Assembly (NCBI RefSeq): GCF_004751985.1
Contig: NZ_CP038492.1
Coordinates: 2,852,001-2,916,000 of the forward strand
DNA from: Rhodophyticola sp. CCM32
Lineage (GTDB): Bacteria; Pseudomonadota; Alphaproteobacteria; Rhodobacterales; Rhodobacteraceae
DNA: 64,000 nucleotides
Direction of reading: 5' to 3'
A program made the position numbers and the translations under genes. Shown in pieces: positions 8,808-63,249 of the stretch. The stretch's first letter is position 1; each line of letters begins with the position of its first letter. Under the pieces are notes generated by a model. The model did not search any database. It worked only from the letters and a program-made list of their open reading frames with translations, and was not told where the DNA came from.

Positions 8808-8841
8808 CGTCAGGTTGGATTTACAGCAAAATCCGGGCACC

Positions 8842-8881: not shown

Positions 8882-8891
8882 ACCTGCGGCT

Positions 8892-10779: not shown

Positions 10780-11032
10780 TGACTTTCATCCTCAACCCGG
10801 ACGGACCCGGTTCATGCCGGCCCCTTATTCCATATGTTCACCCCAACCTGCCCGTTGGAATGCCTCAACACCGATAATCTTGCCGATATTCATATCACGA
10901 GGCAAGGCTATGATTTCCTGCATGGAATCGAAACGGCGCTTTTGGTCTGCAAACTGTCCCCCGATTGCATCACCTGTGTGCCGGGTTAGGTGTTGCCAAA
11001 AGAGTATACGCTAAATGTGGTACCCGCGCGGG
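10780..11032. other. Intergenic region with opposing short ORFs
   Basis: A 51-codon plus-strand frame (10834-10989) with five Cys and a 32-codon minus-strand frame (MQEIIALPRDMNIGKIIGVE..., about 10837-10935) overlap each other. The minus frame, co-directional with leuD, reads more like protein but is cut by a stop upstream and lacks a clear start and ribosome site. Neither is recognised. Just after the leuD stop there is a CCCGCGCGGG palindrome without a T-run. Confidence 0.3.
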
Positions 11033-11638: not shown

Positions 11639-11712
11639 CTGGCGTCTCCTTCGGCTAGGGCCACGGGATAGCGCGTTGCCCGGGCGGGAGCAAGCGGCGC
11701 TCAACACCCAGA

Positions 11713-12522: not shown

Positions 12523-12556
12523 GATATCCGCCATTGTAAAGTCTGAGTATAGCTTG

Positions 12557-13672: not shown

Positions 13673-13698
13673 CCGCGCGACAGGGATAAGGCCCCTCC

Positions 13699-14910
13699 AT
13701 GGGCCGATTTTTCAGTGAAAACCGCCGCTGGCTGGTTACGGGTCTGCTGCTGACCTTCGGCTCTTCCTTCGGGCAGACCTGGTTCATCTCGCTGTTTGCA
13801 GGTGAGATCCGTGCGGAATACGGGTTGAGTGACGGGCAATGGGGCGCGCTTTATACATTTGCCACGCTCAGTTCGGCCCTGCTGCTGCTCAGCCGGGGAT
13901 CGCTGGCCGACACAATGGCCTTTTCCCGGCTGGTGCCTCTGGTGGCGGGGATGTTCGCACTGGCGGCTGTGGCGATGGCCTTTGGCAATACGATCTGGGT
14001 TCTGGGGATCGCCGTGTTTCTGCTCAGGTTCTGTGGGCAGGGCATGTTCGGCCATATTGCGGCGACGGCCATGGGGCGCTGGTTTGTGGCCACACGCGGG
14101 CGCGCCGTTGCGATCACCAATCTGGGCTATCCCATGGGCGAGATGGTGTTGCCGCTGGCGGTGGTTCTGCTGATCGGCGGGATCGGCTGGCGCGAAACCT
14201 GGGCTGTGACCGCCGGGGGGATTGTGCTGGTGCTGTTGCCTGCGCTGATCCTGCTGCTGGCGGAGGATCGCACGCCTTCGGGCATGACGGTCACGACGGA
14301 CGAGACCGCAGGGCTTGAGGGGCGCCACTGGACGCGGGGCCAGGTGTTGCGGCATGGGCTGTTTCTGGCGCTGATCCCGCTGATCCTGACGCCCGGTTTC
14401 ATCGGCACGGTGGTGTTCTTCCATCAGGTTCATGTGGCCGGGATCAAAGGCTGGACCCTGACACAGATGGCCCCTGCCTATCCGGTCTTTGCAAGCGTGA
14501 CCGTTGTGACATCGCTGGTGTCCGGGTGGGCGATGGACCGGTTCGGCGCCGACCGGTTCCTGCCCGTCACCCTGATCCCCATGGGGGTGGCGATGTTTCT
14601 GATCGGCCCGGCGGAAAGCCCGTGGCACTGGGTTTCCGCGCTTGGGATCATGGCGCTGACCCAGGGCATGACCGGCACGTTATGGGGTGCGTTCCTGCCG
14701 ATGATCTACGGCACCGCCCATCTGGGGTCGGTGCGGGCGATTGTGACCGCGCTGATGGTGTTTGCCACCGCGATCGGGCCGGGGCTGACCGGGCTGCTGA
14801 TCGACTGGGGCATCCCGTTCCCCGATCAGGGGATGGCGATGGGGCTGTGGTGTCTGGCGCTGGCCGCAGTGATGCTGCCTGTAAGCCTGCGCCTGCGATC
14901 TGCGCTGTAG
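13699..14910 (+). CDS. MFS transporter
   Basis: A 403-residue major-facilitator protein with about twelve hydrophobic helices. GQTWFISLFAGEIRAEYGLSDGQWG at the N-terminus and RFCGQGMFGHIAATAMGRWFVATRGRAVAITNLGYPMGEMVLPL in the first half are typical of the MFS_1/monocarboxylate-like branch. The substrate is unknown. It lies 26 bp after the HupE-like gene in the same direction and may be co-transcribed. A perfect double palindrome begins immediately after the stop. Confidence 0.9.
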   Translation: MGRFFSENRRWLVTGLLLTFGSSFGQTWFISLFAGEIRAEYGLSDGQWGALYTFATLSSALLLLSRGSLADTMAFSRLVPLVAGMFALAAVAMAFGNTIWVLGIAVFLLRFCGQGMFGHIAATAMGRWFVATRGRAVAITNLGYPMGEMVLPLAVVLLIGGIGWRETWAVTAGGIVLVLLPALILLLAEDRTPSGMTVTTDETAGLEGRHWTRGQVLRHGLFLALIPLILTPGFIGTVVFFHQVHVAGIKGWTLTQMAPAYPVFASVTVVTSLVSGWAMDRFGADRFLPVTLIPMGVAMFLIGPAESPWHWVSALGIMALTQGMTGTLWGAFLPMIYGTAHLGSVRAIVTALMVFATAIGPGLTGLLIDWGIPFPDQGMAMGLWCLALAAVMLPVSLRLRSAL

Positions 14911-14963: not shown

Positions 14964-16370
14964 TCACATCATTTCACGCACATCTGTCAGCCGCCCGGTC
15001 ACGGCCGCAGCCGCAGCCATCGCCGGTGACATCAGATGGGTGCGCCCGCCCCGGCCCTGCCGCCCCTCGAAATTCCGGTTCGAGGTCGCGGCGCAGCGTT
15101 CCCCCGGGGACAGTTGATCGGGGTTCATCGCCAGACACATGGAACAGCCCGCAAGCCGCCATTCAAACCCGGCCTCTTTAAAGATATCCGCCAGACCCTC
15201 TTCCTCGGCCTGGGCACGCACAAGGCCGGAGCCCGGGACAACCATCGCCCGCAACCCGTCTTTGATCTTCTTGCCTTTCAGGATCGCGGCCGCGGCCCGC
15301 AAATCCTCGATCCGGCCATTGGTGCAGGAGCCGATGAAAACCGTATCAACCTTGATCGCGGCCAAGGGGGTGCCCGGTGTCAGAGCCATGTAATCAAGGC
15401 TGCGCTGCGCGGCGTCCACTTTGCCGCCGTTGAAATCCTCTGCCGCGGGCACGGTGCTGGTGATTGGCAGCACGTCTTCGGGGGAGGTGCCCCAGGTCAC
15501 CACCGGCGCGATGTCTTCGCCCCGGATTGTCACGATCTTGTCCCAATGGGCATCCTCGTCGGAATAGAGCGTTTTCCACCAGGCAAGCGCCGCTTCCCAC
15601 TGGGCGCCTTTCGGCGCGTGGGGCCGACCTTTGACATAGTCGAATGTGGTTTCATCCGGCGCGATCAGACCCGCCCTTGCGCCGCCTTCAATCGCCATGT
15701 TGCAGACCGTCATCCGGCCTTCCATCGACAATGCGCGGATCGCCTCACCGCAATATTCGATCACATACCCGGTGCCGCCGGCGGTGCCGGTCTCGCCGAT
15801 CACCGACAGGGTGATATCCTTGGCGGTGACGCCGGGGGCCAGTTTGCCGGTGATCTCCACCTTCATGTTCTTGCCCTTGCGCTGGATCAGCGTTTGCGTG
15901 GCCAGCACATGTTCCACCTCGGATGTGCCGATACCATGGGCCAGCGCGCCAAAAGCCCCGTGGGTGGCGGTGTGGCTGTCGCCGCAGACCACGGTCATAC
16001 CCGGCAGGGTCCAGCCCTGTTCCGGCCCGACGATATGCACGATGCCCTGACGGATATCACTGACCGGGTAGTAATGGATGCCGAAATCGCGCGCGTTCCT
16101 GTCCAGCGCCTCGACCTGAATGCGGCTGTCTTCATTGTCGATATGGGTGTCGCGGCCATCGGTCGTGGGCACGTTATGGTCCGGCACGGCGATGGTCTTG
16201 TCCGGTGCATGCACATCCCGGCCTGCCATCCGCAGCCCTTCAAAGGCCTGTGGGCTGGTGACCTCATGCACCAGATGGCGGTCGATATACAGCAGGCAGG
16301 TGCCATCCTCGGCCTCATGGGCCAGATGGGCATCCCAGATTTTGTCATAGAGCGTTTTGGAGGCGGTCAT
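14964..16370 (-). CDS. leuC: 3-isopropylmalate dehydratase large subunit
   Basis: A 468-residue aconitase-family [4Fe-4S] enzyme that interconverts 2- and 3-isopropylmalate with Leu[17 protein letters not shown] is the normal N-terminus and sets the start at 16370. Signature blocks are present: [52 protein letters not shown] (first cluster Cys) and [32 protein letters not shown] (the other two Cys). A GAGGA ribosome site lies just upstream. Confidence 0.97.
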
Positions 16371-16655
16371 GTTGCGCGGTCCTCGGGGCTGAGGGGTATC
16401 TGAAAAGGCGGAAACGGGATCAGACGGTGCGCCGTCGCCCCCGTATCGCGCCGAGCTGGCCAAAGAACCGCCAGGGCAGGCGGGCGCGGTCACCGATGTT
16501 GAAAACCCGTATCATGACAGGGCAGATACACCTGCATAGGGCCTCTCGCAAGGGCTGCGCCTGTCCGATACCGGCCGGGAGCCGGGCAGGCGTTGTCATT
16601 ATGCGCTTATGCAATAAGCTGACCCGGGTGGGGAATCTTCGAAAAAGGGGCTGTG
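16371..16655. other. leuC / FMN-reductase divergent region
   Basis: This 285-bp gap must hold the promoters of both divergent genes. A minus-strand frame (16420-16596, ending [26 protein letters not shown]) looks mildly protein-like but has no recognised family. I see no leader peptide rich in leucine codons and no clear terminator, so attenuation is not supported. Confidence 0.35.
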
Positions 16656-17204
16656 ATGGCATCGGGGACATTATTGGGTATCTCGGGGTCGCTGCGCGCG
16701 GCCTCGTTCAATCGCAAACTGTTGCGGGAAGCGGCGCGTCTGTTCGAGCCGGAGCAGTTTATCGAGGCCGATCTGCGGCTGCCGCTTTATGATGGCGATC
16801 TTGAGGAGGCGACAGGCATCCCGGCAAAGGTTCAGGTGCTGGCCGACCAGATCGCGGCGTCGGATGCGGTTGTGATCTCGGGCCCGGAATATAACAGCGC
16901 CATTTCAGGGGTTCTGAAAAACGCGCTGGATTGGGTGAGCCGGACAAAAAACAAACCCTGGGCAGGCAAGCCGCTGGCGATCATGTCGGCGGCGGCTGGC
17001 CGTACCGGAGGCGCGCGGTCGCAGTTTGCACTGCGCCATTGTCTGGTGGCCTTTCGCCCCAATCTGATACCCGGGCCGGAACTGATGGTGGCCGATGCCA
17101 GCGGGCAGTTTCAGGAGGATCGGCTGATCAATGAGGCTAATCTCGGCGCGTTGACAGAACTGATGGCGGAATTGCGTGTGGCTGCCGATTTGCCGGAAAT
17201 CTGA
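16656..17204 (+). CDS. NADPH-dependent FMN reductase family protein
   Basis: A 182-residue flavodoxin-like reductase. The FMN phosphate loop GISGSLRAASFNRKLLR near the N-terminus and the SGPEYNSAISGVLKNALDWVSR block around residue 70 are diagnostic of the ArsH/chromate-quinone reductase family. The usual activity is NAD(P)H-dependent reduction of FMN, quinones or chromate; the physiological substrate cannot be deduced. The start ATG 16656 follows an AAAAGGGG ribosome site. Confidence 0.9.
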   Translation: MASGTLLGISGSLRAASFNRKLLREAARLFEPEQFIEADLRLPLYDGDLEEATGIPAKVQVLADQIAASDAVVISGPEYNSAISGVLKNALDWVSRTKNKPWAGKPLAIMSAAAGRTGGARSQFALRHCLVAFRPNLIPGPELMVADASGQFQEDRLINEANLGALTELMAELRVAADLPEI

Positions 17205-31160: not shown

Positions 31161-31243
31161 TGGCGAAACGCCATAGGCCGGATGCAAATGCGCCGGGAGG
31201 GATGGAAAACTCCAGTTTTCCACAGGGAATTCTGGAGAATTCC
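31161..31243. repeat. Paired-hairpin repeat, copy 2
   Basis: The core is GGAAAACTCCAGTTTTCC (31204-31221) plus GGAATTCTGGAGAATTCC (31226-31243). The 5' flank (GGCGAAACGCC, then GCCGGATGCA and CCGGGAGG, from about 31163) is also shared with the copy at 51758-51837, so the full element is about 80 bp with three hairpins. It occupies the convergent gap between gshA and plsY. Confidence 0.85.
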
Positions 31244-31352
31244 GGCGCTCTGGCTTTATGCCGGGCTAGCCCGTTGTCATTGGGGGAGAGCCCAAAGTGT
31301 TCCTCTTCAGAGCAATTGCAAACAGTTTCGGGTGCCGGTGATCAACCCGTGG

Positions 31353-49595: not shown

Positions 49596-50015
49596 TCAGA
49601 GCACCATGTGCCGGGCCCGCGCACCGCGTTCGATGGCGGCTGCATGCAACCGGTCAATATCGAACTGATAGCGAATCTCCATCAGGAATTCCAACTCGGT
49701 CTGGCGCAGTTTCCCGTCAGCGGCAGCCACATCACAGGCCAGCGCATAGGCGGTTTCATAAAGACGTTCGGGCAGGGCGTTCTTGATCAGGCCGAACAGG
49801 GCATCAAGCCCGTCTTCCTCTTCAAACAGGTCAAACACGGTTTGTGAGACCTGTTTCATCCGATCCGCGTCATATTTGGCGAATACCGGCAAATGGTTGA
49901 CCAGTTCCTGGATCGTCACAAGCTCGGCCGTGCGGATGTTTTCGTCGGACACAGAGACCGCAACCATGACGGCAACCAATGCATCCTGGGCGGAAAGGGC
50001 GGTATCATCGGTCAT
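49596..50015 (-). CDS. TerB-family (tellurite resistance-like) protein
   Basis: A 139-residue all-helical protein of the TerB/DUF533 fold: [32 protein letters not shown] and [31 protein letters not shown] are the paired metal-binding-like EF-type helices seen in this family. The family has diverse, mostly unproven roles; tellurite resistance should not be assumed from this gene alone. Start MTDD at 50015. Confidence 0.82.
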
Positions 50016-50134
50016 CTTTGGTCTCTCCTGTCGGCGATATGCATCACTGGAATTTATTGACCCGCGCGGCCCGGGGCAATAGGTGCAGGCGACGCGCGGC
50101 AAGGTGGCGCGGCAGTGAACAGGAAAACCCCGAT

Positions 50135-51724
50135 ATGACCGATTTGCGTGATGCAGCCCTCAATTCCAGGGCCTGGCCCTTTGAAGAGGCGCGGCGCCTG
50201 GTCAAACGGTACGAAAAAGCGCCGCCCGAAAAGGGGTATGTGCTGTTTGAAACCGGCTATGGGCCGTCGGGCCTGCCGCATATCGGCACGTTCGGTGAAG
50301 TGCTGCGCACAACCATGGTGCGCCGCGCCTTTGAAAACCTGTCGGACATCCCCACCAAGCTGATCTGCTTTTCCGATGATATGGACGGAATGCGGAAAGT
50401 GCCGGACAATGTGCCGAACCCCGGGATGCTGGCCGAGTATCTGCAAATGCCGCTGACCTCGGTCCCCGATCCGTTTGATGAATATGAAAGTTTTGGCCAT
50501 CACAACAACGCCATGCTGCGGCGGTTTCTGGACACGTTCGGGTTTCAGTACGAGTTTTATTCCGCGCGTGAGTTTTATCGCTCGGGCCAGTTTGATGCGA
50601 CGCTGCTGCGCGCGGCTGAGCGTTATGACGATCTGATGGCGGTGATGCTGAAATCGCTGCGTGAGGAACGGCAGCAGACCTATTCGATCTTTCTGCCGAT
50701 CCATCCCGAAACCGGCCGGGTGCTGTATGTGCCGATCAAACATGTGGATGCGGCGGAGGGCACGGTGACGTTCGATGATGACACCGGACGGGAATGGACG
50801 CTGCCGGTCACCGGCGGGCATGTGAAGCTGCAATGGAAGCCGGATTTCGGGGCGCGCTGGGCCGCGCTGGGCGTGGATTGGGAAAGCTATGGCAAGGAAC
50901 ATGCCCCCAATACGGCGATCTATTCGGCGATCTGTTCCAGACTGGGCGGCACCCCGCCGCAGGTTTTCACCTATGAGCTGTTTCTGGACGAGAACGGGCA
51001 GAAAATCTCGAAATCCACGGGCAACGGGATCAGCATTGATGAATGGCTCAGCTATGCCTCGACCGAAAGCCTCAGCTATTTCATGTATCAAAAACCCAAA
51101 ACCGCGAAACGGATGCATTTCGATGTGATCCCCAGGGCGGTGGATGAATACCACCAGCAGTTGCGCGCCTATGCGGGGCAGGACACAGCCGCCCGACTGA
51201 ACAACCCTGTGTTCCATATCCATGGGCATAATGTGCCGGCCTCGAATATGGTGGTCAGCTTTTCGATGCTGCTTAATCTGGCCTCTGTGGCGCATGCCAA
51301 GGATAAAGAGGCGCTTTGGGGGTTCATCCGGCGCTATGCGCCCGATGCCAGCCCCGAAACCCATCCCGATCTGGATCAGGCGGCGGGGTTTGCGCTGCGC
51401 TATTACGATGATTTCGTGAAGCCGCATAAGGCGTTCCGTCTGGCCGATGAGAAAGAGGCCGCGGCAATGCGCGATCTGACCGACCGGCTTGGCGCCTATG
51501 ACGGGCCGCTGGAGGATGAGGCATTGCAGACCATCGTTTTCGCCGTCGGTAAGGCGCATGGGTTCGAACCGCTGCGCGACTGGTTCAAGGCGCTTTACGA
51601 GGTGTTGCTGGGGGCCAGCCAGGGCCCGCGCTTTGGCGGGTTCGTGGCGCTTTATGGCGTGTCCGAAACCGTGCAGCTGATCGAGGATGGTCTGGCAGGC
51701 AAACTGGTGGGGCTGAACACCTGA
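50135..51724 (+). CDS. lysS: Lysyl-tRNA synthetase, class I
   Basis: A 529-residue class I (archaeal-type, LysK) enzyme. [23 protein letters not shown] holds the HIGH-like HIGT (49-52), [18 protein letters not shown] follows, and [11 protein letters not shown] holds the KMSKS-like KISKS (near residue 290). The C-terminal helical domain starts about residue 350. Class I LysRS replaces the bacterial class II enzyme in alphaproteobacteria, which supports the taxonomic reading. The start overlaps no neighbour. A paired-hairpin repeat follows. Confidence 0.97.
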
Positions 51725-51757: not shown

Positions 51758-51837
51758 GGCGAAACGCCGTGGTGCCAGATGCACCGGGAGGCTTGGAAAA
51801 CTCCAGTTTTCCACGCGGAATTCTGGAGAATTCCGCG
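51758..51837. repeat. Paired-hairpin repeat, copy 3
   Basis: GGAAAACTCCAGTTTTCC (51795-51812) and GGAATTCTGGAGAATTCC (51817-51834; arms extend to CGCG on both sides, 51814-51837) are the same two palindromes as at 31204. The shared flank GGCGAAACGCC ... CCGGGAGG starts near 51759. It lies in the convergent gap between lysS and the first sulfatase. Confidence 0.85.
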
Positions 51838-51978
51838 TGAGAGCGGTTTGCGATCAGGCAGCCTCATATACAGGGCAAGCCGCTTATTTTATAATTTTTC
51901 CGGTTTGCTCCGGCGGTGGTCGGATCGTCATAGGCTTGGTCACGAGGACCGCTTTATAGTGGGGTTATGGCATGTCGT

Positions 51979-53538
51979 TCATGGCGTGAGGTTCAATCGC
52001 GCGAATTGTTCCAACGGCGCATCTACGGCGTGCATCAACTCAACCATTTTCAGTTTTAGCCCGCGTTCGATATCCGCGTCATCAAGCATAATCTCCTGAT
52101 TTGGATCGGCCTGCGTATCCCAGAGCATTGTGTCAAATTGCCCATCACGAGCGACCCAGGTTATGTTCTCGATCTTCATCGTGCACGCCCCTTTTTGAAA
52201 TGAGAACGGCTCTGCAATCTGAAGATCGGCAAAATCCTCAACAGCAAATGAGGCGCGCATATGCGTGGGCATCAGTGTATATTGATAGAGCGGTTTGTTG
52301 TCCGGGTTTTGCGGCGCGCGCATATAGACATAGTGCCCATCCGTGATGTTCACATGGGCTCCGTGCATACCAAAGATTGCGGCATCGCGAACGGGCGTGT
52401 CATCAGCAATCACCCCCGACAGGTCATGACCTGTCATATCCTTGGTTGGTGTAACTCCAAAGAAGGTCAGCAGGGTTGGCGCCAGGTCAATCGACGGTTG
52501 AACAAGAGATTTGCGGCGTTCGCCCTTGTTCCCAACGCGCGGATCCCAGATGAAAAAGGGCGTGTTGGCGATTTCCTGATACATCGGCATCGACATCTTG
52601 CCCCACCAGTCGTGTTCGCCCAGCAGAAAACCATGATCCGTCCAGACGATCAGCATTGTGTCGTCCCAAAGCCCCTTGTCGTCCATCATGTCCATGACCT
52701 TGCCAAGGTATTCGTCACACATGCTGACAAGGGCCGCGTATTCGACGCGCAGGTGTTTGCTTTCCTCAGGATGCTCATTTGTCCGCGCATACATGGGCCA
52801 GTCGAACATCGGGCCATCGTAGTTTTTATGATGTTCTGCGTAGAGCTCTTTATAGCGGTCCAGCGTGTAGAAGGGTTCATGCGGATCGAAGGTCTCGATA
52901 TGCAGCATCCAGTTGTCGTGACCCGCATTTTTCTCGATGAAATCAAGACCGGCCTTGAATGTGCGCGCCTGGGGCTGGTTTTCCTCGATATTCATAAAGC
53001 CGCGGTTGACCCAATCCTGCCGCGTCAGATACCGAAGCCGCTCCATCGAGGCATCGCTTTCTTCTGGGAAGGCCTTTCGGTAATCGTCAAAGACTTTGCT
53101 TTCAGTGTAGATTCCGTTCTTGCCAAAGGCACCCTTGGGGATGTCCGGCTCGTTGAGGTCTCCGATCCACGGGTCGCCCTCCTGTCCGCGCCAGTACTGC
53201 CATGTTGTGTAATGCGTATGATAATTCAGTCCACCATCTTCGAAATAGTGGTTGTGATCGGTTGTCAGATGCGTGTGGATGCCAGCATCGCTTAGCATCT
53301 TTGGCATGCTGTCATCGAAAGGTTCCAGCGGCCCCCAACTGCGGTGAAGGAAATTCGGTCGGCCCGTGTGCAAGTCGCGCCGTGCCGGCATACAGGGCAT
53401 GGAACAGACATAAGAGGTGTCAAACGTCACCGCCCTGTCGGACAGGCGTTTGAAATTGGGCGCGTGGACCCAGTCATTGCCATAGCTCGGCAGGAAGTGT
53501 CGGCTCAGCGTATCAAACATCACGACGATGGCTTTCAT
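51979..53538 (-). CDS. Sulfatase, type I (formylglycine), cytoplasmic
   Basis: A 519-residue alkaline-phosphatase-superfamily sulfatase. AIVVMFDTLSRHFLPSYG supplies an early metal-binding Asp, C49-M-P-A-R53 fits the CxPxR site for formylglycine formation, and LIVWTDHGFLLGEHDWWGK the later metal D-H pair. The C-terminal HVNITDGHYVYMRAP is typical. There is no signal peptide, so it should act in the cytoplasm on an imported sulfate ester. It lies beside a LysR gene and opposite a family-5 ABC system. The substrate is unknown. Confidence 0.9.
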   Translation of the reverse strand: MKAIVVMFDTLSRHFLPSYGNDWVHAPNFKRLSDRAVTFDTSYVCSMPCMPARRDLHTGRPNFLHRSWGPLEPFDDSMPKMLSDAGIHTHLTTDHNHYFEDGGLNYHTHYTTWQYWRGQEGDPWIGDLNEPDIPKGAFGKNGIYTESKVFDDYRKAFPEESDASMERLRYLTRQDWVNRGFMNIEENQPQARTFKAGLDFIEKNAGHDNWMLHIETFDPHEPFYTLDRYKELYAEHHKNYDGPMFDWPMYARTNEHPEESKHLRVEYAALVSMCDEYLGKVMDMMDDKGLWDDTMLIVWTDHGFLLGEHDWWGKMSMPMYQEIANTPFFIWDPRVGNKGERRKSLVQPSIDLAPTLLTFFGVTPTKDMTGHDLSGVIADDTPVRDAAIFGMHGAHVNITDGHYVYMRAPQNPDNKPLYQYTLMPTHMRASFAVEDFADLQIAEPFSFQKGACTMKIENITWVARDGQFDTMLWDTQADPNQEIMLDDADIERGLKLKMVELMHAVDAPLEQFARLNLTP

Positions 53539-53649
53539 TGGGTCGTTTCCTTCGGGTCATATGCCACGCGAAAGCCGATATGGCCGCATCCCAAGCTTGT
53601 AGCATTGCCCGGAGATGTCATCTATCTGACAAATAATTGGGGATTGCCC

Positions 53650-54588
53650 TCACTTGAGGTTATTAAGCCTAGCCTGTGCCAACAGGAACTCTGCCAAATT
53701 CCAGACATTGTCACTCACTGGAATATTTCTGGGAAATCCCACATAATAGCTGAATCCCCGGTTCAGAACTGTCGAACCCAGCTCGACCAGTTGCTTGCGT
53801 TTCAAATACCCGGAGATCATGTTTCTGCACCCCAGCACAACACCATCGCCCCGAGCCGCAGAGGCGACGGCCAATGCATAATTTGTGTAGACAAACTTTG
53901 GTCTGACAATCAGATCTTTCCTGCCGATCTGCTGAAACCACTCCTTGAGCGAAATCGAGTTTATGTTGCTTCTCTCGTAGTCAAAGAGATCAAGCTGCAC
54001 CACGTCATCCGGGCCGAGTTGATCCCAGTTGCTGCGCAGACCAGCTTTTTCCAGATAGCCTGGTGCCGCAACCGGGATCAGTTCTTCCGTGAACAAGATA
54101 GACATGTTCCAGTCAGGCAACAGATCAGGGGCGAACAGGATGGAAATTCCATTCTCCGAGTTCGACAGCTCTTTGGCCTTCCTTGATGTTAAGAGCCGAA
54201 CGGATGCGTCCGCGTGTGAACAGCAATAATCCTTGAGCTTTTCACTTAACCAAAGGTCAGAAATCGCCGGAGCTGCGGAGACCTGAATGGGTTTTTCGTA
54301 AGTGTTGCCGTCATGGCTGAGCTCCTCAATCTCATGGGACAGGTAGTCCAAGGCCACTTGCACATGACGGAACAGCCTGTTTCCACTTGGCGTCAGCTTC
54401 AGTTTCTTTCCGTGGCGCTGAAACAACTCGATTCCCAGAAGGTTTTCCAGGTTCTTGATGCGCCGGCTCACAGCCGCTTGCGTGACGGATAATTCATTTG
54501 CCGCCGCCGTGAAACTCATCTGCCGCGCGCAGGCTTCAAAGACACGCAATGCGTCAAGCGGTATGATATCAATGAGACGCCGTGCCAT
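53650..54588 (-). CDS. LysR-family regulator (GcvA-like)
   Basis: A 312-residue LysR protein. The N-terminal HTH covers about 10-70 (ALRVFEACARQMSFTAAANELSVTQAAVSRRIKNLENLLGIELFQRHGKK). The rest is an effector-binding domain of the GcvA/AmpR type. It lies between a sulfatase (same strand) and a divergent ABC substrate-binding gene, so it is the likely regulator of this island. Codon use is less GC-rich than in the core genes. Confidence 0.9.
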   Translation of the reverse strand: MARRLIDIIPLDALRVFEACARQMSFTAAANELSVTQAAVSRRIKNLENLLGIELFQRHGKKLKLTPSGNRLFRHVQVALDYLSHEIEELSHDGNTYEKPIQVSAAPAISDLWLSEKLKDYCCSHADASVRLLTSRKAKELSNSENGISILFAPDLLPDWNMSILFTEELIPVAAPGYLEKAGLRSNWDQLGPDDVVQLDLFDYERSNINSISLKEWFQQIGRKDLIVRPKFVYTNYALAVASAARGDGVVLGCRNMISGYLKRKQLVELGSTVLNRGFSYYVGFPRNIPVSDNVWNLAEFLLAQARLNNLK

Positions 54589-55008
54589 TGGTTGAATCCC
54601 TTCATGCCTGCTGCATGACTTTTATTGATCCAAGAGCGCTTTTAAAGCCCCGTTGAGTTTTCGGTGCTTGTCAAACTTCTCGCGAGTTTCAGGCGGTGGA
54701 ACAGCAGGCCGGATTGGTTGGTACACTTCTGAATTCTTCCAGGCCCATGCGCGGTGTCCGATCTGTCCCAGGGCATGATAGATAACATTAGATCATGCAT
54801 TTGCCAGATTTTTTTGTAGGTGGTGCGCGATGGAGCCCCCGATATCATGAAGGTCACAATTTTCGGAGGGTAAGAGAGCCTCTTGCGAGGGTAAGGGCCT
54901 CTGGCGTTTTCAGGCGAAAAGCATGCTTGCGGGCAGCCTGAATAACCACCTCGTCCAAGCAGTCTGATTTTGATTGCCTGATCAATGTGACAAAACAGGG
55001 AGAGACAG
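54589..55008. promoter_or_regulatory. Divergent control region of the sulfatase/ABC island
   Basis: This is a 420-bp gap with no credible gene. TTGATTGCCTGATCAA (54970-54985) is a dyad with TTGAT/ATCAA arms about 25 bp before the ABC gene start. TTGATCCAA near 54625 is a related half. The first fits a LysR T-N11-A operator. A GGGAGAGACAG ribosome site precedes 55009. Confidence 0.45.
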
Positions 55009-56658
55009 ATGATCAAAATGAAAAAACCCGCAGACCCTAACCTAGCGGATTATCTGCGCGAAAATGCAGATTATGCAAAAAATGGAACAGACGTTGACCG
55101 CCGCGAATTTTTGGCGCTGGCGACTGCGTTCGGCGCAACGACTGCCGCAGCTTACGGAATGCTCGGGCTTGCTTCACCGGCCATAGCTCAGGGTGAACCG
55201 CAACAGGGCGGCACACTGAAGTTGGCCATGCTTGTTCGTGAACAGAAAGATCCACGCACATATGACTGGGGCCAACAGGCCGGGGTTGCCCGGCAGGTCA
55301 ACGAATACCTCGTGCGCTACACCAAGGATTTCACCTTCGAGGGCCAGTTGCTTGAAAGCTGGACGGTCAATGATGCTGCAACCGAATACACGCTGAACGT
55401 TCGCAGAGGTGTGTTGTGGAACAACGGTGACACATTCAATGCCGATGATGTGGTGTTCAACCTGACGCGCTGGTGTGAAAAAGACGTCGAAGGCAATACA
55501 ATGGCCAACCGCATGAAACCGCTGGTTGATCCTGAGACCAACAGGGCCGCTGACGGCGCGATTGTTAAGGTTGACGACTACACAGTTGTCCTGAATTTGC
55601 GCGACCCGGACATTACCATCATCCCGGCGATGGCTGATTACCCGGCAATGATCGTGCACCGTGATTTCGAAGAAATGGGGTCCGACTGGCTGGCCAATCC
55701 GATTGGGACCGGAGCCTTTGAACTCGTATCCTACGAGGTTGGGAACCGCGTTGTGCTTCGGCGGCGTGAAACAGGCTGGTGGAAAGGTGCGGCACATCTG
55801 GATGGCGTCGAATTCATTGATTACGGCACCAGAACCGACGCGCTCATTTCCGCGTTCGAATCCGGTGAAATTGATGCCAACCATGAAAGCAACGGGCAGG
55901 TAAACCTGATCCTCGACTCGTTGGGTCTGGAGAAAAGCGAAGTTGTCACCGCTGCCACAGTGGTGGCTCGTATGAATGCGGACAATCCGCCCTATGATGA
56001 CCAACGGGTGCGCAATGCAATTCAGTTGTCGGTAGACAACAACGCGCCACTTCAACTGGGCATCGACGGGCTGGGCACCATAGCCGAGAACCACCATGTC
56101 TGCCCGATCCACCCCGAATATGTCGAATTGCCGCCGATTGCGCGGGATCTCGAACGTGCCGCAGAATTGATGGCTGAGGCGGGACAGACCGATTTTGAAC
56201 ACGAGCTGATCTCGGTCGATGATGACTATCGCCGTCTTACGGCGGACGCGATCGCCGCGCAGATGCGGGATGCCGGGTTCAACGTCACGCGGACAGTGAT
56301 CCCCGGGTCGACATTTTGGACAGACTGGACAAAATACCCCTTCTCGATCACCAACTGGAACATGAGACCGCTTGGTGTTCAGGTTTATGCTTTGACCTAT
56401 CGCACGGGCGTAAACTGGAACGAATCCGCCTTTTCTGATGCTGAATTCGATATGCTGATCGATGAGGCTATCGCGACACCGGGCATTGAGCGACGTAAAG
56501 AATTGATGGGCCGCGCCGAAGCGATCTTGCAAGATAGTGGGGCCATTGTTCAGCCCTACTGGCGCTCGCTGTTCTGTCATTATTCACCCAGGGTGCACGG
56601 CTACTACAAACACCAGACCGGTGAAGTGCATCTGGATGATGTCTGGATGTCAGCCTGA
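55009..56658 (+). CDS. ABC transporter substrate-binding protein, family 5 (peptide/opine type)
   Basis: A 549-residue periplasmic receptor of the DppA/OppA class. [21 protein letters not shown] is a twin-arginine (RR-x-F-L) signal after an unusually long 30-residue leader, with cleavage probably after [38 protein letters not shown] is the family-5 signature. It starts an operon with two permease genes. Neighbouring sulfatases suggest that the cargo is a sulfated compound rather than a peptide; that is inference. Confidence 0.92.
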
Positions 56659-56770
56659 GCCAGAAATTTGCTTCCGCGGCGTTCGTTTTGTCTCTCTGCG
56701 GGAGCAACCAGATCACCGACGAGCTGCGTTTATTGATCAAAGCAGGCCTCAAGTGGCAAGAGCGGCATAA

Positions 56771-57808
56771 ATGATACGATTCATCATCAGGCGGCTGTGC
56801 GTAATGGCGCTATCAGCATTTTGCCTGTCGTTGATTATTTTCCTGATCACCAATCTGGAGCCAAACCTGCGCAATCTGGCAATTACTCAGACCAACATGC
56901 GCGCAGATGAAGCCGCCCTGGAAAGTTGGCTGGAAAAAAACGGGTATCGGGAAAATACTTTCATCCGCTACGGTATGTGGCTGGGGATCGTTGCAAAACA
57001 ACCGATAATTGACGAGGAGGCGGGCCTGCCCATATCCCGCTTCGGGTATTGCGACGAAGTTACCGAGCCACGGTTTTCTGGTGTGCTGCAGGGCGACTGG
57101 GGTTGTTCAACAAAATTCAACCAGAATGTCAGCGAAAGACTTGGGCCAGCGCTGATTTCCACCGGTATTCTGATGTTCTGGGTGATGATTGTCATGGTGC
57201 CGTTGGCGCTCACCATGGGGGTGCTGTCTGGGATGCGTGAAGGCTCCCGTCTGGATCGGGTCTTGTCGGTTATTTCCATTATCGGCACTGCCACACCCGA
57301 ATATGTTTCCGGCGTGGTCTTTACGGTTGTGTTTGCATCCTGGCTTGGGGTGTTGAACGGGTCGGCTGCCACAGCGACATCCAGTGGCGTAACGTTTCAC
57401 AATTTCACCTTGCCGGTGATGACGATGGTGTTTTTCGGGATGGGTTATATTGCCCGTATGACACGTGCGTCGATGGCAGAGGTGATGACCCAGCAATATA
57501 TTCGCACAGCAAGACTGAAGGGCGTCAGTTTTACCTCCATTGTCCTGAAGCATGCGCTGCGCAATGCCTTGGTCACACCGTTTACCATCGTCATGTTACA
57601 ATTTCCGTGGCTGTTGAATGGCGTCGTCATCGTTGAAGTCATTTTCCGGTATCAAGGTTTCGGATATGTTTTGGTCGAAGGCGCTACCAATAATGACATT
57701 GACCTGCTCCTGGCCTGTGGAACGATCTCGGTTGTCCTGGTTCTGACCACGCAACTCATCTCGGACATTGGGTATGTGTTCCTGAACCCACGTATCAGGG
57801 TGAGTTAG
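56771..57808 (+). CDS. ABC transporter permease, DppB type
   Basis: A 345-residue inner-membrane permease. MIRFIIRRLCVMALSAFCLSLIIFLI is the first helix, and the conserved cytoplasmic loop with EYIRTARLKGVS-like sequence (QQYIRTARLKGVSFTSIVLKHALRNALV) is the EAA motif that contacts the ATPase. A long periplasmic insert (about 40-110) is typical of DppB. It is 112 bp after the binding-protein gene and 4 bp before the second permease. Confidence 0.92.
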   Translation: MIRFIIRRLCVMALSAFCLSLIIFLITNLEPNLRNLAITQTNMRADEAALESWLEKNGYRENTFIRYGMWLGIVAKQPIIDEEAGLPISRFGYCDEVTEPRFSGVLQGDWGCSTKFNQNVSERLGPALISTGILMFWVMIVMVPLALTMGVLSGMREGSRLDRVLSVISIIGTATPEYVSGVVFTVVFASWLGVLNGSAATATSSGVTFHNFTLPVMTMVFFGMGYIARMTRASMAEVMTQQYIRTARLKGVSFTSIVLKHALRNALVTPFTIVMLQFPWLLNGVVIVEVIFRYQGFGYVLVEGATNNDIDLLLACGTISVVLVLTTQLISDIGYVFLNPRIRVS

Positions 57809-57812
57809 ACAC

Positions 57813-58964
57813 ATGAACACCGCTCTGGTCTTTGAAATCCTCTTTGGCATCACCGCCAGACTTTGGCCTGCGCTGATTGCTTTGCTGGGCATTGCGGTTG
57901 TCAGCGTTACCCTGCGAGACCGGCTTGGAGCATATGGCCGTCTTTGGACGCATGGTTCAGGCACGGTTGGGCTTGTCCTGGTCCTTATATGGGTGCTGAT
58001 CGCGGTTTTTGCGTCCCAAATCGCCGCGTTTGACCCCCTTCAACAGTATCTCGTGATGCAAAATCGACCGCCAGGGGCGATTGAGCCAGAGACAGGTGAG
58101 ATGTTTCTGCTTGGCGCTGACCGTTTGGCGCGGGATGTCTTCAGCAGGATTGTCTATGGCAGCCAATTTGTTCTTTCTATTGCGCCGACAGCAAGCGCTC
58201 TGGCGCTTGTCACCGGTTTGCTTCTCGGTTTGCCTGCCGGATATCATGGCGGAAAGATCGACACAGCGCTGTCGTTTCTTGCCAATCTGATTTTGGCGTT
58301 TCCGGTCATTCTGATTTTCTATCTTCTGGTCTCTCCAGGCGTCAGCGCTTCAAACCTGCCAAGAGCTCTGGGAGGGATTATTCTGTTTTTCCCTCTGGTT
58401 TTTATCGTGATACTGCTTTTCACCAGATTTTCGACACGTCCTTTGGTTGCATTGGGCTATGTGGGTTTATCCATTGTGATTGGTCTCTGGCTGTTTGTCG
58501 GATTTGTCTTTGATGTGGATCCGACCGGTCTGATATCGATTTCTCCCGGCGTCCTGAATATTTTCGTTGCCGTCGTTCTGGTCGCCTGTCCGGGATTGTT
58601 CCGGGTTGTGCGTGGTTTGACGCTGGATGTGTGCTCAAGGGATTATGTCGCTGCGGCCCAGACACGCGGAGAGTCATCCTGGTACATCATGTTGTGGGAG
58701 ATACTGCCGAACGTACGCGGCCCGCTGATCGTCGACTTTTGTCTGCGCATTGGCTTCACAACGATCCTTCTCGGCACGCTGGGGTTCTTTGGACTGGGCC
58801 TGGAGCCGGAAAGCCCTGACTGGGGGACCTCGATCAAGGACGGAAGTGCATTATTGCGCCTTTTTGTCTGGCCCGCGCTGTTTCCTGCGCTGGCGCTCAT
58901 GTCCCTTGTCCTGGGATTGAACCTGCTGGCGGACGCAATCCGAGAGATATCGCTTGAAGACTAG
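57813..58964 (+). CDS. ABC transporter permease, DppC type
   Basis: A 383-residue inner-membrane permease with about six to seven helices. EMFLLGADRLARDVFSRIVYGSQ is the DppC signature (normally GTDxxGRDxxSR). The EAA loop is in VCSRDYVAAAQTRGESSWYIMLWEILPNVRGPL, and the C-terminus NLLADAIREISLED is normal. It is somewhat longer than usual because of extra hydrophobic sequence around residues 160-230. Neither DppD nor DppF ATPase genes follow. Confidence 0.9.
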   Translation: MNTALVFEILFGITARLWPALIALLGIAVVSVTLRDRLGAYGRLWTHGSGTVGLVLVLIWVLIAVFASQIAAFDPLQQYLVMQNRPPGAIEPETGEMFLLGADRLARDVFSRIVYGSQFVLSIAPTASALALVTGLLLGLPAGYHGGKIDTALSFLANLILAFPVILIFYLLVSPGVSASNLPRALGGIILFFPLVFIVILLFTRFSTRPLVALGYVGLSIVIGLWLFVGFVFDVDPTGLISISPGVLNIFVAVVLVACPGLFRVVRGLTLDVCSRDYVAAAQTRGESSWYIMLWEILPNVRGPLIVDFCLRIGFTTILLGTLGFFGLGLEPESPDWGTSIKDGSALLRLFVWPALFPALALMSLVLGLNLLADAIREISLED

Positions 58965-58989
58965 GGGCACCAAATTTGATCAATCAAAA

Positions 58990-60632
58990 ATGAACGGAAA
59001 GCCGGTCACGATGGATAATGCAGCGCAATCTACAGATAACCCCAACATCTTTCTGATCCTTGTCGATGATATGGGGTATTCAGACATCGGATGCTATGGC
59101 GGTGAGATCAAGACACCCAATCTGGACCGGCTGGCGCGCGAAGGAATGCGATTTTCCAGCATGTATAATGCCGCACGATGCTGCCCGACACGTGCGTCAC
59201 TGTTGACCGGTTGCTATCCACACCGGGCCGGTATCGGACATATGATCGGTGACCTTGGGCCAAAATCCTATCGCGGCAGATTGCTTGATGAATCCGTCAC
59301 AATTGCCGAAGCGCTGAAGCAGGCTGGCTACAATACGATGATGTCTGGCAAATGGCATGTGGGCGGTGATTATGACAGCCGCGACGCGGACCACTGGTCG
59401 CCCGGTGATCCCTCACACCCCACGCCACTTCAGCGCGGATTTGACAGATTCTATGGTACACTCGACGGTGCATCGAGTTTCTTCAATCCGCACTACCTTA
59501 TGGAAGACACAAAGAGGGTCTTTCCCGACTGCGATGATTATTACATCACCGATGCGTTTTCGCGAAAAGCGATCTCTATGATCCAGGATCAGCAAAGCAG
59601 CGAAAACCCGTTCTTCCTCTACCTCGCCTATACCGCCCCCATTGGCCACTCCACGCGCCCGAAGAGGCCATTTCCAAATATGAAGGGATGTTTCAACGGG
59701 GCTGGGATTACTACCGGGGCGCACGGTTTGAAGAACTCAAAGCCACCGGCATTTTGAAAGACGGTTGGAACATCTCACCACGGGACCCTCACGTCGAGGC
59801 GTGGGATATAGTATCGGACAAAAGCTGGGAAGATCGCCGCATGGCTGTCTATGCGGCTCAGGTTGAACTGTTGGATAAGGGCGTGGGCGACGTGCTGGAT
59901 GAGCTGGACCGCCTTGAGATTGCGGACAACACCATCGTCATGTTCCTGTCAGACAATGGAGGCTGCGCCGAATACCTGGCCGAGGATGGCTGGGCCCGGT
60001 TCTACGGCGGCACCTCCCTTGACGGTCGTGAGGTCGTGCTGGGAAACCGCAAGGATATGATACCGGGCGACGCCACGACCTTCATGAGCTACGAACGCGG
60101 ATGGAGCAATCTTTCGAACGCGCCATTTAGGATGCACAAACGCTATGTTCATGAAGGGGGCATTTCGACCCCGTTCATTGTCCGGTGGCCGGGGGTCGTG
60201 CAACCTAATTCCATCACACATTCCGAGTGCCACGTTATGGATGTCATGCCGACCTGCCTCGACCTGGCCGCCGCGAAGGCTCCAAAGGAGCGCGCTGAAA
60301 TGGGCGCGCCTGTCATGGATGGCGAGAGTTTTCTGGATTGTCTGCGCGGTGCCGGGAAATCGCGCGAGACCCCCATATGCTGGGAACATCAGGGCAATGC
60401 TGCCATTCGTCTGGGTAAATGGAAACTCGTCAAGCAGTTCGGGGCTGATTGGGAACTGTACAATATGGACGATGACAGGCCCGAATTGAACAACCTCATG
60501 TCCGGTAATGAAGTCATCCGCGACAGACTCCTCAATGAATACAATGGTTGGGCGACCTATTGTGATGTGCGCGATTGGAGCGAAATGGCGAAGAAGTTTC
60601 AGAAGCTCTATGCAGGTGGCAAGCTAACGTGA
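58990..60632 (+). pseudogene. Arylsulfatase-type sulfatase, one frameshift
   Basis: Two frames make one 547-residue sulfatase. NIFLILVDDMGYSDIGCYGGEIKTPNLDRLAREG carries the metal-binding D-D, C64-C-P-T-R68 (with ASLLTGCYPHRAG after it) is the canonical formylglycine site, and TMMSGKWHVGG the Lys/His block. The frame breaks at a run of five C (59636-59640). One more base gives TAPHWPLHAPEEAISKYEGM and joins the second frame, which has NTIVMFLSDNGGCAEY (second metal D-N). There is no signal peptide. Starts at 59011 or 58954 are possible. It is co-directional with the ABC genes. Confidence 0.88.
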
Positions 60633-60761
60633 TCTGTTCTCAATATGATCTGGCACCGCCCCATTTTACAGCAACAGGTCAGGATTACCGACTTACTGAT
60701 ATGAAATGGACTCCGAGCCCCTGAAATCAGGGTGCTGACCCTAAGCCGGGTTTTGAGAGCC

Positions 60762-60867
60762 AGGGACGCCTCCGGCGGGCGTATTTGAAACAAGAAGAAG
60801 GCGCGGATAATTTAAATCAAATTGTCGGCTTCTTCATCTCATAAATACTTCCGCCGGAGGCGTCCCT
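60762..60867. repeat. Inverted pair of GCCTCCGGCGG elements
   Basis: AGGGACGCCTCCGGCGG (60762-60778) and its exact complement (60851-60867) face each other 72 bp apart. The similarity extends inward over TATTT and AGAAGAAG to about 40 bp per arm. The core matches 17232-17250. It fills the convergent gap between the second sulfatase and ALDH16, could fold as a long hairpin, and is a candidate bidirectional terminator. Confidence 0.7.
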
Positions 60868-60894
60868 GACTGTCAGGCAGGCGGACAGGCGCGA

Positions 60895-63249
60895 TTATTC
60901 CCCATAGGGTATCCAGATGGTTTTCACTTCGGTGGCGGCCTGCAGGAAATGTTTGCCGACCCCCGCGCTGCTCATCCAGTCGATGCCCTGACCGTCATGG
61001 ACCCAACTGCGTTTGAGGTTGGAGGCCGAGGCGGCTTCCACCAGTTCCGAAGGCGCGCGGGGTGTGAAGGCCCAGATTGCATCAACATCCATATGACCGG
61101 CCAGCGGTTTGGCCAGTTCCGCCGGATTGCCGGTGACGATATTGACCACTCCGGCCGGCACATCCGAGGTGTCGAGTATCTGATAGAGATCGGTTGCGGC
61201 AAGGGGGGCAGGGTAGCTGGGCACCAGCACGATCCGGTTGCCCATGGCGATGGCGGGCGCAATCAGAGAGACGGCGCCCAGAAGCGGTGCCTCATCCGGG
61301 GCCAGCGCACCGATCACACCCATCGGTTCGGTCATCGCCAGCGCCACACCCCGGATCGGGACGGATTTCGCGCTGCCATCGAATTTATCGGCCCAGGCGG
61401 CATAGGTGAACAGCCGGTCAATGGCGGTCTCCACCTCGGCCATCGCGGCTTTGGCATTGGTGCCGGTCAGATCGTGAAGGCGCTGGCTGAATTCCCCGGC
61501 CCGGGCCGAGAGGTTTTCACCGATATAATAGAGGATCTGCGCCCTGAGATGGCCGGTGGTTCTGGACCAGCCCCCGGCATTGCGGGCCGCTTCAACCGCA
61601 TTGCGGATGTCCTTGCGATTGCCAAGGCCCATATGGCCCAGAAGCCTGCCTTTGGGCGACCAGACGGGTGTTGAATAGCCCCCATCCGGGCGGGCCTGTT
61701 TGCCGCCGATATACATTTTCGCGGTCCGGTCGAGGCCCGGGGCCTCGGCTGTGTCGGGGGCGGGCACGGGCGCAACCGGCTTCAGCGGTTTGGTTTTGAC
61801 GACGGGTTTGAGATAAGCCTGCAACCCCTCCCACCCGCCTTCCCGGCCAAAGCCGCTTTCGCGCAGGCCCCCGAACGGGGCGGCGGCATCAAACAGGTTG
61901 GTGGCGTTGACCCAGACCACACCGGCGGCAAGTTTCGGGCCGATATCAAGGGCAAGGTTCAGGTTTTCCGTCCAGAGGCTGGCGGCCAGCCCGTAACGGG
62001 TGTTGTTGGCGATCTCGACCGCTTCGGCAGGGGTGCGGAAGGTGGTGGAGACCAGGACGGGGCCAAAGATCTCCTCCTGCATAAGGGGCGCGGCAGGGGA
62101 GAGGCCGGTGATCAGGGTCGGCGGGTAGAAGCAGCCGGTCTCCGGCAGGGGGATGGCGGCGCGATAGGTGTCGCCTTCTGTATTGTTCCCCACCAGTCGG
62201 GTGATCGTGGCATGCTGGACCGGGTCCACCACCGCGCCCAGATCAATGCATTTGTCGAGCGGGTCGCCGATGCGCAGCTTGTCCATCCGGGCCTTCAGGC
62301 GGGTATGGAAATCTTCGGCAATCCCCTCCTGCACCAGAAGCCGCGATCCGGCGCAGCAGACCTGCCCCTGATTGAACCAGATGGCATCGACCAGCCCCTC
62401 GATGGCTGAATCGATATCGGCATCGTCGAACACGATATAGGGGGATTTCCCGCCCAGCTCCAGCGTCAGGGATTTCCCGCTGCCCGCGGTCGCTTGCCGG
62501 ATATGGCGACCCACCTCGGTAGAGCCGGTGAAGGCGACCTTGTTGACATCTATGTGGGTAGTCAGCGCCTCACCCGTGCGGCCATCGCCGGTGACGATAT
62601 TGACCACGCCCTTGGGCAGGCCCGCCTCGCGGCAGATATCGGCAAACAGCAACGCGGTGAGGGACGTGTATTCCGCAGGTTTCAGGACAAGTGTGTTCCC
62701 GGCAGCCAGTGCGGGTGCGATTTTCCAGGCCAGCATCAGCAGCGGGAAGTTCCAGGGGATCACCTGACCGCAGACGCCAAGCGGTGCGTGACCCGGCAGT
62801 TCCTCTTCCAGCAATTGGGCCAGCCCGGCATGGTAATAGAAATGCCGCTGTGCCAGCGGGATGTCGATATCGCGGGCCTCACGGATCGGTTTGCCATTGT
62901 CGAGGGTTTCCAGCACCGCGAAAAGGCGGCTGTGTTTCTGCAACAGCCGGGCCAGGGCATAGAGATGCCGCGCCCGCTGATGTCCGGTGAGCTTGGCCCA
63001 TTTCGGGAAGGCGCGGCGGGCGGCGGCCACGGCCCTGTCCACATCCCCTGCGGTGCTTTGGGTGATCTGCGCCAGCTCTTCCCCGGTCGCGGGGTTGTTG
63101 CTGGCGAAAGTTTCCCCCGGTTCGGTGAAGGCACCGTCGATAAAGGTGCCGAATGCCGGGCCGTTCCGGGTGATCCAGTCGCGGGCCTCGGCATCGCTTT
63201 CGGGGGCGGGGCCATATTCCATCGTGCCGAAGATTTCGCGGGTGGTCAT
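60895..63249 (-). CDS. Two-domain aldehyde dehydrogenase (ALDH16 family)
   Basis: A 784-residue protein. The first ALDH domain (about 35-490) is complete: GVCGQVIPWNFPLLMLAWKIAPALAAGNT, FTGSTEVGRHI, the Glu block LELGGKSPYIVFDDADID, and the nucleophile in FNQGQVCCAGSRLL near residue 295. After a Pro-rich linker, a second ALDH-like domain (about 515-784) lacks a catalytic Cys block and is shortened. This matches ALDH16, where the second domain is structural. It follows deoC, so oxidation of the acetaldehyde from deoxyribose-phosphate is a plausible role. Confidence 0.9.
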   Translation of the reverse strand: MTTREIFGTMEYGPAPESDAEARDWITRNGPAFGTFIDGAFTEPGETFASNNPATGEELAQITQSTAGDVDRAVAAARRAFPKWAKLTGHQRARHLYALARLLQKHSRLFAVLETLDNGKPIREARDIDIPLAQRHFYYHAGLAQLLEEELPGHAPLGVCGQVIPWNFPLLMLAWKIAPALAAGNTLVLKPAEYTSLTALLFADICREAGLPKGVVNIVTGDGRTGEALTTHIDVNKVAFTGSTEVGRHIRQATAGSGKSLTLELGGKSPYIVFDDADIDSAIEGLVDAIWFNQGQVCCAGSRLLVQEGIAEDFHTRLKARMDKLRIGDPLDKCIDLGAVVDPVQHATITRLVGNNTEGDTYRAAIPLPETGCFYPPTLITGLSPAAPLMQEEIFGPVLVSTTFRTPAEAVEIANNTRYGLAASLWTENLNLALDIGPKLAAGVVWVNATNLFDAAAPFGGLRESGFGREGGWEGLQAYLKPVVKTKPLKPVAPVPAPDTAEAPGLDRTAKMYIGGKQARPDGGYSTPVWSPKGRLLGHMGLGNRKDIRNAVEAARNAGGWSRTTGHLRAQILYYIGENLSARAGEFSQRLHDLTGTNAKAAMAEVETAIDRLFTYAAWADKFDGSAKSVPIRGVALAMTEPMGVIGALAPDEAPLLGAVSLIAPAIAMGNRIVLVPSYPAPLAATDLYQILDTSDVPAGVVNIVTGNPAELAKPLAGHMDVDAIWAFTPRAPSELVEAASASNLKRSWVHDGQGIDWMSSAGVGKHFLQAATEVKTIWIPYGE

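What the first reader, a model, noticed from the sequence alone, without database searches (positions are those of the whole stretch)
51979..60632. Sulfatase island: two cytoplasmic sulfatases, a LysR regulator and a family-5 ABC importer without ATPases
Both sulfatases carry CxPxR formylglycine sites and neither has a signal peptide, so the ester must be imported intact, presumably by the adjacent binding protein and two permeases. The ATPases normally next to such permeases are missing, so they must be borrowed from another locus. The region is lower in GC and lies between repeat-bearing junctions. It is a candidate uptake and desulfation pathway for an undescribed marine sulfated metabolite.
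Basis: partly seen in the sequence, partly recalled or inferred. Interest (0 to 1): 0.7.

Follow-up and report, generated by a model that had tools for sequence, protein, structure and literature searches.

The report
Sulfatase island with ATPase-less importer
A foreign-looking stretch of a bacterial chromosome carries two sulfatases (one of them broken in this sequence), a regulator and an importer that lacks its own engine; a matching engine is encoded elsewhere in the same genome, so the stretch probably imports a small sulfated compound and removes its sulfate inside the cell, a known kind of system in an unusual arrangement.

Summary
The island is real: sulfatase A and LysR on the minus strand; a Tat-type binding protein, two permeases and sulfatase B on the plus strand; 53.4% GC against 62.0% for the rest of the window. 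The missing ATPase is a local absence. In 12 of 23 loci with a related binding protein the same permeases are followed by a fused ATPase, and its relative sits in a complete paralogous cluster of the same genome, C1:1447323-1453870. The island's ATPase-docking loops match that cluster in 27/32 and 29/36 positions, and 24 of 30 diagnostic columns are of that type. A second candidate is an orphan fused ATPase 109 kb away. Sulfatase genes in or touching ABC-importer operons recur in this genome and in rhizobia. The substrate is unknown. Relatives of the binding protein lie near MttB-type methyltransferases in 13 of 23 loci, against 0 of 48 control loci, which hints at methylated amines. A new variant of a known kind.

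The parts
51979..53538 (-). Sulfatase A, 519 aa, CMPAR site, no leader
   Evidence: PF00884 3.8e-35 from residue 4; motif
53650..54588 (-). LysR-type regulator, 312 aa
   Evidence: PF00126 and PF03466; nearest NCBIfam models GcvA and choline sulfate regulator, both below cut-off
54589..55008 (.). 420-base region between the divergent lysR-sulfA and SBP units; presumed control region
   Evidence: ORF coordinates; control inferred, promoter-like sites at chance level
55009..56658 (+). Family-5 solute-binding protein, 549 aa, twin-arginine leader
   Evidence: PF00496 1.4e-61; R31, R32, E33, F34 invariant in 20 aligned sequences; Tat reading by eye
56771..57808 (+). Permease B, 345 aa
   Evidence: PF00528 1.5e-30; EAA loop 27 of 32 identical to set D
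57813..58964 (+). Permease C, 383 aa
   Evidence: PF00528 1.9e-14 and PF12911; EAA loop 29 of 36 identical to set D
58954..59757 (+). Sulfatase B, first ORF (CCPTR site); homology ends near 59,640
   Evidence: PF00884 profile positions 1-174; relatives align to residue 229
59688..60632 (+). Sulfatase B, second ORF, in another frame
   Evidence: PF00884 profile positions 198-299 and PF16347
51779..51840 (.). Left-hand dispersed repeat element
   Evidence: Three further places in 312.5 kb of own DNA
60754..60875 (.). Right-hand inverted repeat, 50-nt arms, 80% complementary

Best explanation
A horizontally acquired module for uptake and cytoplasmic desulfation of a small organic sulfate ester. 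LysR senses the ester or a product and controls two divergent units. The Tat-exported binding protein captures the ester and permeases B and C admit it, powered by an ATPase encoded elsewhere, most likely the fused two-domain ATPase of the resident paralogous importer 'set D' (C1:1447323-1449410). Sulfatase A, and B if its break is an artefact, release sulfate after formylglycine maturation by the one FGE-family protein of the genome. Shown by computation: gene content, foreign composition, families, the complete paralogous cluster, matching docking loops. Inferred: function, ATPase lending, regulation, substrate.
For: In 12 of 23 loci encoding a relative of the SBP, SBP-PermB-PermC is followed by a fused ATPase 65-78% identical to the set D ATPase. 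Set D is complete in the own genome: SBP 53.8%, PermB 56.8%, PermC 51.2% identical to the island. EAA docking loops match set D in 27/32 and 29/36 against 175/312 and 166/347 elsewhere; 24 of 30 columns that separate set D-type from orphan-type clusters are set D-like. The permease tree puts the island among set D-type users (UFBoot 68, within a clade at 88). Island genes have third-position GC 0.59-0.66, set D 0.735-0.777. A second ATPase-less copy (G131) coexists with a complete set D-type cluster. Sulfatase genes lie in or touch ABC-importer operons at four other places in this genome, and complete parallels exist in rhizobia. One FGE-family gene.
Against: No experiment. Sulfatase B is broken in the sequence. 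The docking loops are conserved across the whole family (orphan-type clusters 23/32 and 25-26/36), so they separate the two lenders only modestly. A second possible lender exists. FastTree put the island at the base of the whole group. Island proteins keep fewer family-invariant columns than any of the other 24 clusters (98/104, 105/114, 96/101). In the 41 relative loci screened, none has a sulfatase A- or B-like gene beside the SBP except as told for M382.
Confidence: 0.48

Rival explanations
1. The island's permeases are powered by the orphan fused ATPase at C1:2793268-2795055, not by set D.
For: No BPD_transp_1-type permease was detected within 19 kb of it. Relatives 73-74% identical sit directly behind this kind of permease pair in G063 and G166. 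The type is rare: 6 of 295 family genomes, own included, with only four candidates scored per genome.
Against: In G017, G209, G093 and at a second place in G166 the same type is also without island-type permeases nearby, so being an orphan is not tied to an island like this. A FecCD permease lies 1.3 kb from the own orphan. 24 of 30 diagnostic columns and the tree favour set D.
Confidence: 0.2
2. The island is a decaying acquisition: the ATPase was lost, sulfatase B is a pseudogene and the importer no longer works.
For: Sulfatase B is frame-broken, there is no ATPase, and retention of invariant columns is the lowest of 25 clusters.
Against: Five other ORFs are intact, and retention is still 92-95%. 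The break lies at a G/C run, like most of the five broken genes examined in this assembly. Of ten relatives of sulfatase B opened, nine are uninterrupted.
Confidence: 0.2
3. Importer and sulfatases are neighbours without a common substrate: the importer carries a methylated amine or another non-sulfated compound.
For: MttB-type methyltransferases lie near the SBP relative in 13 of 23 loci and in 0 of 48 control loci; aromatic amino acid lyases lie beside the importer of G131. Ten opened relatives of sulfatase B show no family-5 importer beside them.
Against: Sulfatase B starts inside the end of permease C in the same operon. A LysR-sulfatase-SBP order with this type of SBP occurs in M382. 10 of the 13 MttB loci are Mesorhizobium, so they are not independent.
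Confidence: 0.2

Closest known systems
Peptide/opine/nickel-type ABC importers with a family-5 binding protein (Dpp, Opp, Gsi, Nik)
   Same: SBP_bac_5 binding protein and two BPD_transp_1 permeases; the SBP model has the DppA/OppA/GbpA/opine-binding fold
   Different: No ATPase gene in the cluster; all NCBIfam models of these systems score below their cut-offs
Rhizobial sulfatase and ABC-importer islands: Neorhizobium petrolearium CP123001, R. leguminosarum pRLG203
   Same: LysR, ABC importer and a sulfatase A relative (49-50%) in one stretch; two sulfatases in the first
   Different: Both carry ATPases; pRLG203 has a sugar-type importer and an FGE gene in the cluster
Shared-ATPase sugar importers (MsmK, MsmX)
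   Same: An ATPase encoded apart from the permeases that it powers (listing with start of abstract)
   Different: Those are sugar importers; here a fused two-domain ATPase of a peptide/opine-type importer would be shared, untested
Choline sulfate utilisation (betC, choline sulfatase; choline sulfate regulator)
   Same: Leaderless type I sulfatase with a LysR regulator
   Different: Both proteins are far below the family cut-offs; a true family member lies elsewhere in the genome

Membership tests
Formylglycine-dependent type I sulfatases (PF00884) | Sulfatase domain with CxPxR | tested here: met
   A and both pieces of B match PF00884; motifs present
Formylglycine-dependent type I sulfatases (PF00884) | An FGE to mature them in the genome | tested here: met
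   One FGE-family match, 1e-70; its two-cysteine motif is read by eye against a recalled motif
Formylglycine-dependent type I sulfatases (PF00884) | Intact open frame in sulfatase B | tested here: not met
   Two ORFs in different frames
Formylglycine-dependent type I sulfatases (PF00884) | Sulfate ester hydrolysis | not testable with these tools
   Needs enzyme assay
Family-5 (peptide/opine/nickel-type) ABC importer | SBP_bac_5 and two BPD_transp_1 permeases | tested here: met
Family-5 (peptide/opine/nickel-type) ABC importer | ATPase domains encoded in the cluster | tested here: not met
   None in the island; complete paralogue elsewhere
Choline sulfatase (TIGR03417) and its regulator (TIGR03418) | Score above the family cut-off | tested here: not met
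   A 100.9 against 433.45, B pieces 56.4 and 60.4, LysR 162.1 against 324.8
Shared-ATPase importer (MsmK/MsmX-like behaviour) | One ATPase shown to power more than one importer | not testable with these tools
   Only docking-loop and phylogenetic support
Horizontally acquired genomic island | Base composition unlike the host | tested here: met
   0 of 346 windows as low
Horizontally acquired genomic island | Matched end repeats or an adjacent tRNA | tested here: not met
   Junctions share only one weak 19-nt pair; the only tRNA of the window is at 4344-4420
Horizontally acquired genomic island | Integrase or transposase gene | tested here: inconclusive
   None among the 8 proteins scanned; the rest of the window was not scanned

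The most novel reading that the evidence does not exclude
This importer family spreads as plug-in modules: binding proteins alone, or binding protein plus permeases without ATPase, together with an enzyme for their cargo (MttB-type demethylases, aromatic amino acid lyases, sulfatases), all drawing on one resident fused ATPase. The island would then add uptake and cytoplasmic desulfation of a sulfated methylated-amine-type metabolite by acquiring only the specificity parts.
Probability: 0.2. Interest if true: 0.62.

Novelty: new variant of a known kind. Interest (0 to 1): 0.42.

Why it matters
If right, it names a testable lender for an ATPase-less importer of the peptide/opine type and shows how a bacterium can gain an organic-sulfate route by acquiring only binding protein, permeases and sulfatase. 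It also warns that judging transporters by neighbouring genes alone can call working ones incomplete. Uptake proteins for organic sulfate esters are little known (general knowledge, not tested here).

Tried and rejected
Choline-O-sulfate as the default cargo: set aside, because sulfatases and regulator fall far below the family cut-offs and one of ten other own sulfatases scanned is a choline sulfatase above cut-off. It is not excluded as a ligand of the binding protein.

Empty site: the gene to the right (784-aa double aldehyde dehydrogenase) is found in 7 of 7 genomes of the genus, own included, but lysS was not detected beside it in the stretches opened from the six others (5 to 17 kb each), so no empty site could be shown.

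Copy of the island elsewhere: one 65-base match in 72,556 plasmid records by near search; no complete copy among the loci opened. The closest sulfatase A (75%, G030) aligns only to residue 278; beyond it the sequence looks LysR-like and an FGE-like ORF lies next to it (read by eye).

Ligand from structure: the SBP model (pLDDT 85.9, pTM 0.87) matches the general family-5 fold with tied scores, which does not tell the ligand. No Rfam family at gathering threshold in 50-64 kb. Promoter- and terminator-like sites are near the shuffled mean. Paper searches (open-access text only) listed no description of this arrangement; passages were read in five papers, the rest seen as listings.
Full report
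What is there. Between lysS (49979-51724, named by eye) and a 784-aa protein with two aldehyde dehydrogenase stretches (60895-63249, minus) lie, on the minus strand, lysR 53650-54588 and sulfatase A 51979-53538, and on the plus strand an SBP 55009-56658, permeases 56771-57808 and 57813-58964, and sulfatase B. The stretch has 53.4% GC against 62.0% for the rest of the window; none of 346 overlapping windows of equal length from the rest of 312.5 kb of own DNA is as low (lowest 55.2%), and third-position GC of the island genes is 0.59-0.66. It is compositionally foreign.

Sulfatase B is two ORFs in different frames; homology passes from one to the other near 59,640. Of ten relatives opened, nine are uninterrupted; the tenth (G171) has an in-frame stop just past the same residue, which I cannot explain. 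Other genes of this assembly are split: one more sulfatase among 16 genes (18 matches), two of 18 family-5 binding proteins (20 matches), one of four MttB genes (5 matches); one ATPase match holds a TGA. Of the five frame-split genes, four have a G/C run of five or more within 35 bases of a junction estimate (for one of these it is 21 bases off and only with one of two estimates) and the fifth has a run of four; 11.6% of 4,000 random 70-base windows have a run of five or more and 41.8% a run of four or more. The sample is small and was looked at after the fact. Sequence error or slippage is likely, decay not excluded.

Sulfatases. Both bear CxPxR and neither has room for a leader (by eye). Solved relatives are distant for A (best 4UPL, 6.5e-22) and closer for B (7ALL, 1.3e-54, first piece; Pseudomonas-type arylsulfatase entries including 1HDH, 5.1e-31, second piece). 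The genome has one FGE-family gene. Counts with the own genome included: sulfatase A relatives reach E 1e-60 in 7 of 61 relatives and E 1e-100 in 15 of 394 family genomes; B's second piece reaches E 1e-60 in 18 of 345. In some searches only the top 3 to 6 candidates per genome were scored, so these are lower bounds.

The importer family. Of 23 contigs encoding a relative of the SBP (51-63% identical in the best segment, one at 40%), 12 show SBP-PermB-PermC followed by a fused ATPase of 688-991 aa as called, 65-78% identical to the ATPase of own cluster D; one more (L101) shows the same order in fragments; ten show an SBP without these permeases, two of them (L081, L091) on contigs too short to be sure. 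Own cluster D is complete: SBP 53.8%, PermB 56.8%, PermC 51.2% identical to the island, ATPase C1:1447323-1449410, with third-position GC 0.735-0.777. The SBP type is common: 229 of 295 family genomes at E 1e-120, own included, four candidates scored per genome. G303 and G010 each have an SBP without permeases as well as a complete cluster.

Which ATPase. Two lenders were found: set D, and an orphan fused ATPase at C1:2793268-2795055 with no BPD_transp_1-type permease detected in 19 kb (a FecCD permease lies 1.3 kb away). Relatives of the orphan follow this same kind of permease pair in G063 and G166, so the permease family has changed ATPase partner at least once; the two ATPases are 41-45% identical. 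But the orphan type also stands without island-type permeases in G017, G209, G093 and at a second place in G166. Set D is favoured: the EAA docking loops of the island match it in 27/32 and 29/36 positions, against 175/312 and 166/347 in the rest of the permeases; three other own importers reach 12-17 and 13-16. The loops are conserved across the family, orphan-type clusters reaching 23/32 and 25-26/36, so the difference between lenders is modest. Of 30 columns that separate the types, 24 are set D-like, 4 orphan-like, 2 neither (the orphan type is defined by only two related clusters). The permease tree puts the island with set D-type users (UFBoot 68, within 88); FastTree put it at the base of the group, so its place is uncertain. 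G131 has an independent ATPase-less copy, sister at 100 to an ATPase-bearing one, beside aromatic amino acid lyases, and also a complete set D-type cluster.

Against function. At columns invariant in the other 24 clusters the island keeps 98 of 104 (PermB), 105 of 114 (PermC) and 96 of 101 (SBP), the lowest of 25 in each, for the SBP about equal to L099.

What it carries. MttB-type methyltransferases lie within about 10 kb of the SBP relative in 13 of 23 loci; 48 control loci (797 kb: 20 own-genome stretches, the rest fetched from other genomes for other reasons) have none. 10 of the 13 are Mesorhizobium, so they are not independent, and no control is Mesorhizobium. In L081, L082, L084, L095 and L096 MttB ends within 50 bases of the SBP ORF; among 18 further loci, own set D included, 4 have MttB. 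The own genome has four MttB genes, none in the window stretch studied. This hints at methylated amines. A sulfatase beside this SBP type was seen once outside the island, on a plasmid of Rhodobacteraceae bacterium M382 (LysR, sulfatase, SBP 53.5%); it is a PF00884 member but about 20% identical to A. Glycine betaine demethylation by MtgBCD in marine Rhodobacteraceae is described in PMC12478193 (passages); a salt-induced mttB without salt phenotype in Mesorhizobium alhagi in PMC4302635 (passages).

How ordinary. Of the 14 other own sulfatase genes, four lie in or touch an ABC-importer operon: L068, L257, L261 (sugar type) and L072 (family-5 type, convergent). Parallels with the ATPases present are Neorhizobium petrolearium CP123001 and R. 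leguminosarum pRLG203, which also has an FGE. Uptake by ABC transporter followed by intracellular desulfation is known in kind (Pseudomonas ats/sft systems, recalled; the SftR title was seen in the reference list of PMC3827995). ATPase sharing is known in kind (MsmK, MsmX; listings), and a transporter that recruits several binding proteins for quaternary amines (Cbc) was seen as a cited title.

Junctions. The left element recurs at three more places in 312.5 kb; the right one is a local inverted repeat; they do not match as ends. No tRNA is near.

Verdict. Real but partly misread: a foreign module of a known kind, with one sulfatase broken in this sequence and an ATPase absent locally, not from the genome.

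Noticed in passing
G000:C1:2363620-2364743, 2674721-2675706, 3741135-3742192, 1131200-1132695, and window near 59,640: Five frame-split genes in a single-contig assembly, most with a G/C run at the junction, which suggests residual indels in the assembly.
   Followed up: partly
L242 (G171:C1:2641001-2660000), about 9600-9650: A relative of sulfatase B has an in-frame stop just past the same residue at which the island's copy is broken; two breaks at one place are unexplained.
   Followed up: no
L067 (G000:C1:2784000-2803000), 14997-17128: RuBisCO-large-like protein next to transketolase-like genes, near the orphan fused ATPase.
   Followed up: no
L165 (G131:C1:4176001-4195000), 5712-14213: ATPase-less SBP-permease cluster flanked by two aromatic amino acid lyase genes and an epimerase-family gene, a different cargo for the same importer family.
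   Followed up: partly
window 51779-51840, 31188-31244, 8841-8882; L066 12561-12603: Short palindromic dispersed repeat, four places in 312.5 kb of own DNA.
   Followed up: no
L113 (G030:C28:1-20000), about 600-2950: Closest relative of sulfatase A (75%) is cut after residue 278; neighbouring ORFs look LysR-like and FGE-like by eye.
   Followed up: no
window 60895-63249: 784-aa protein with two aldehyde dehydrogenase stretches, found in 7 of 7 genomes of the genus, beside a deoC-like gene in the six relatives opened.
   Followed up: no
L081, L082, L084, L095, L096: MttB-type methyltransferase gene ends within 50 bases of a family-5 SBP that has no permease detected nearby.
   Followed up: partly
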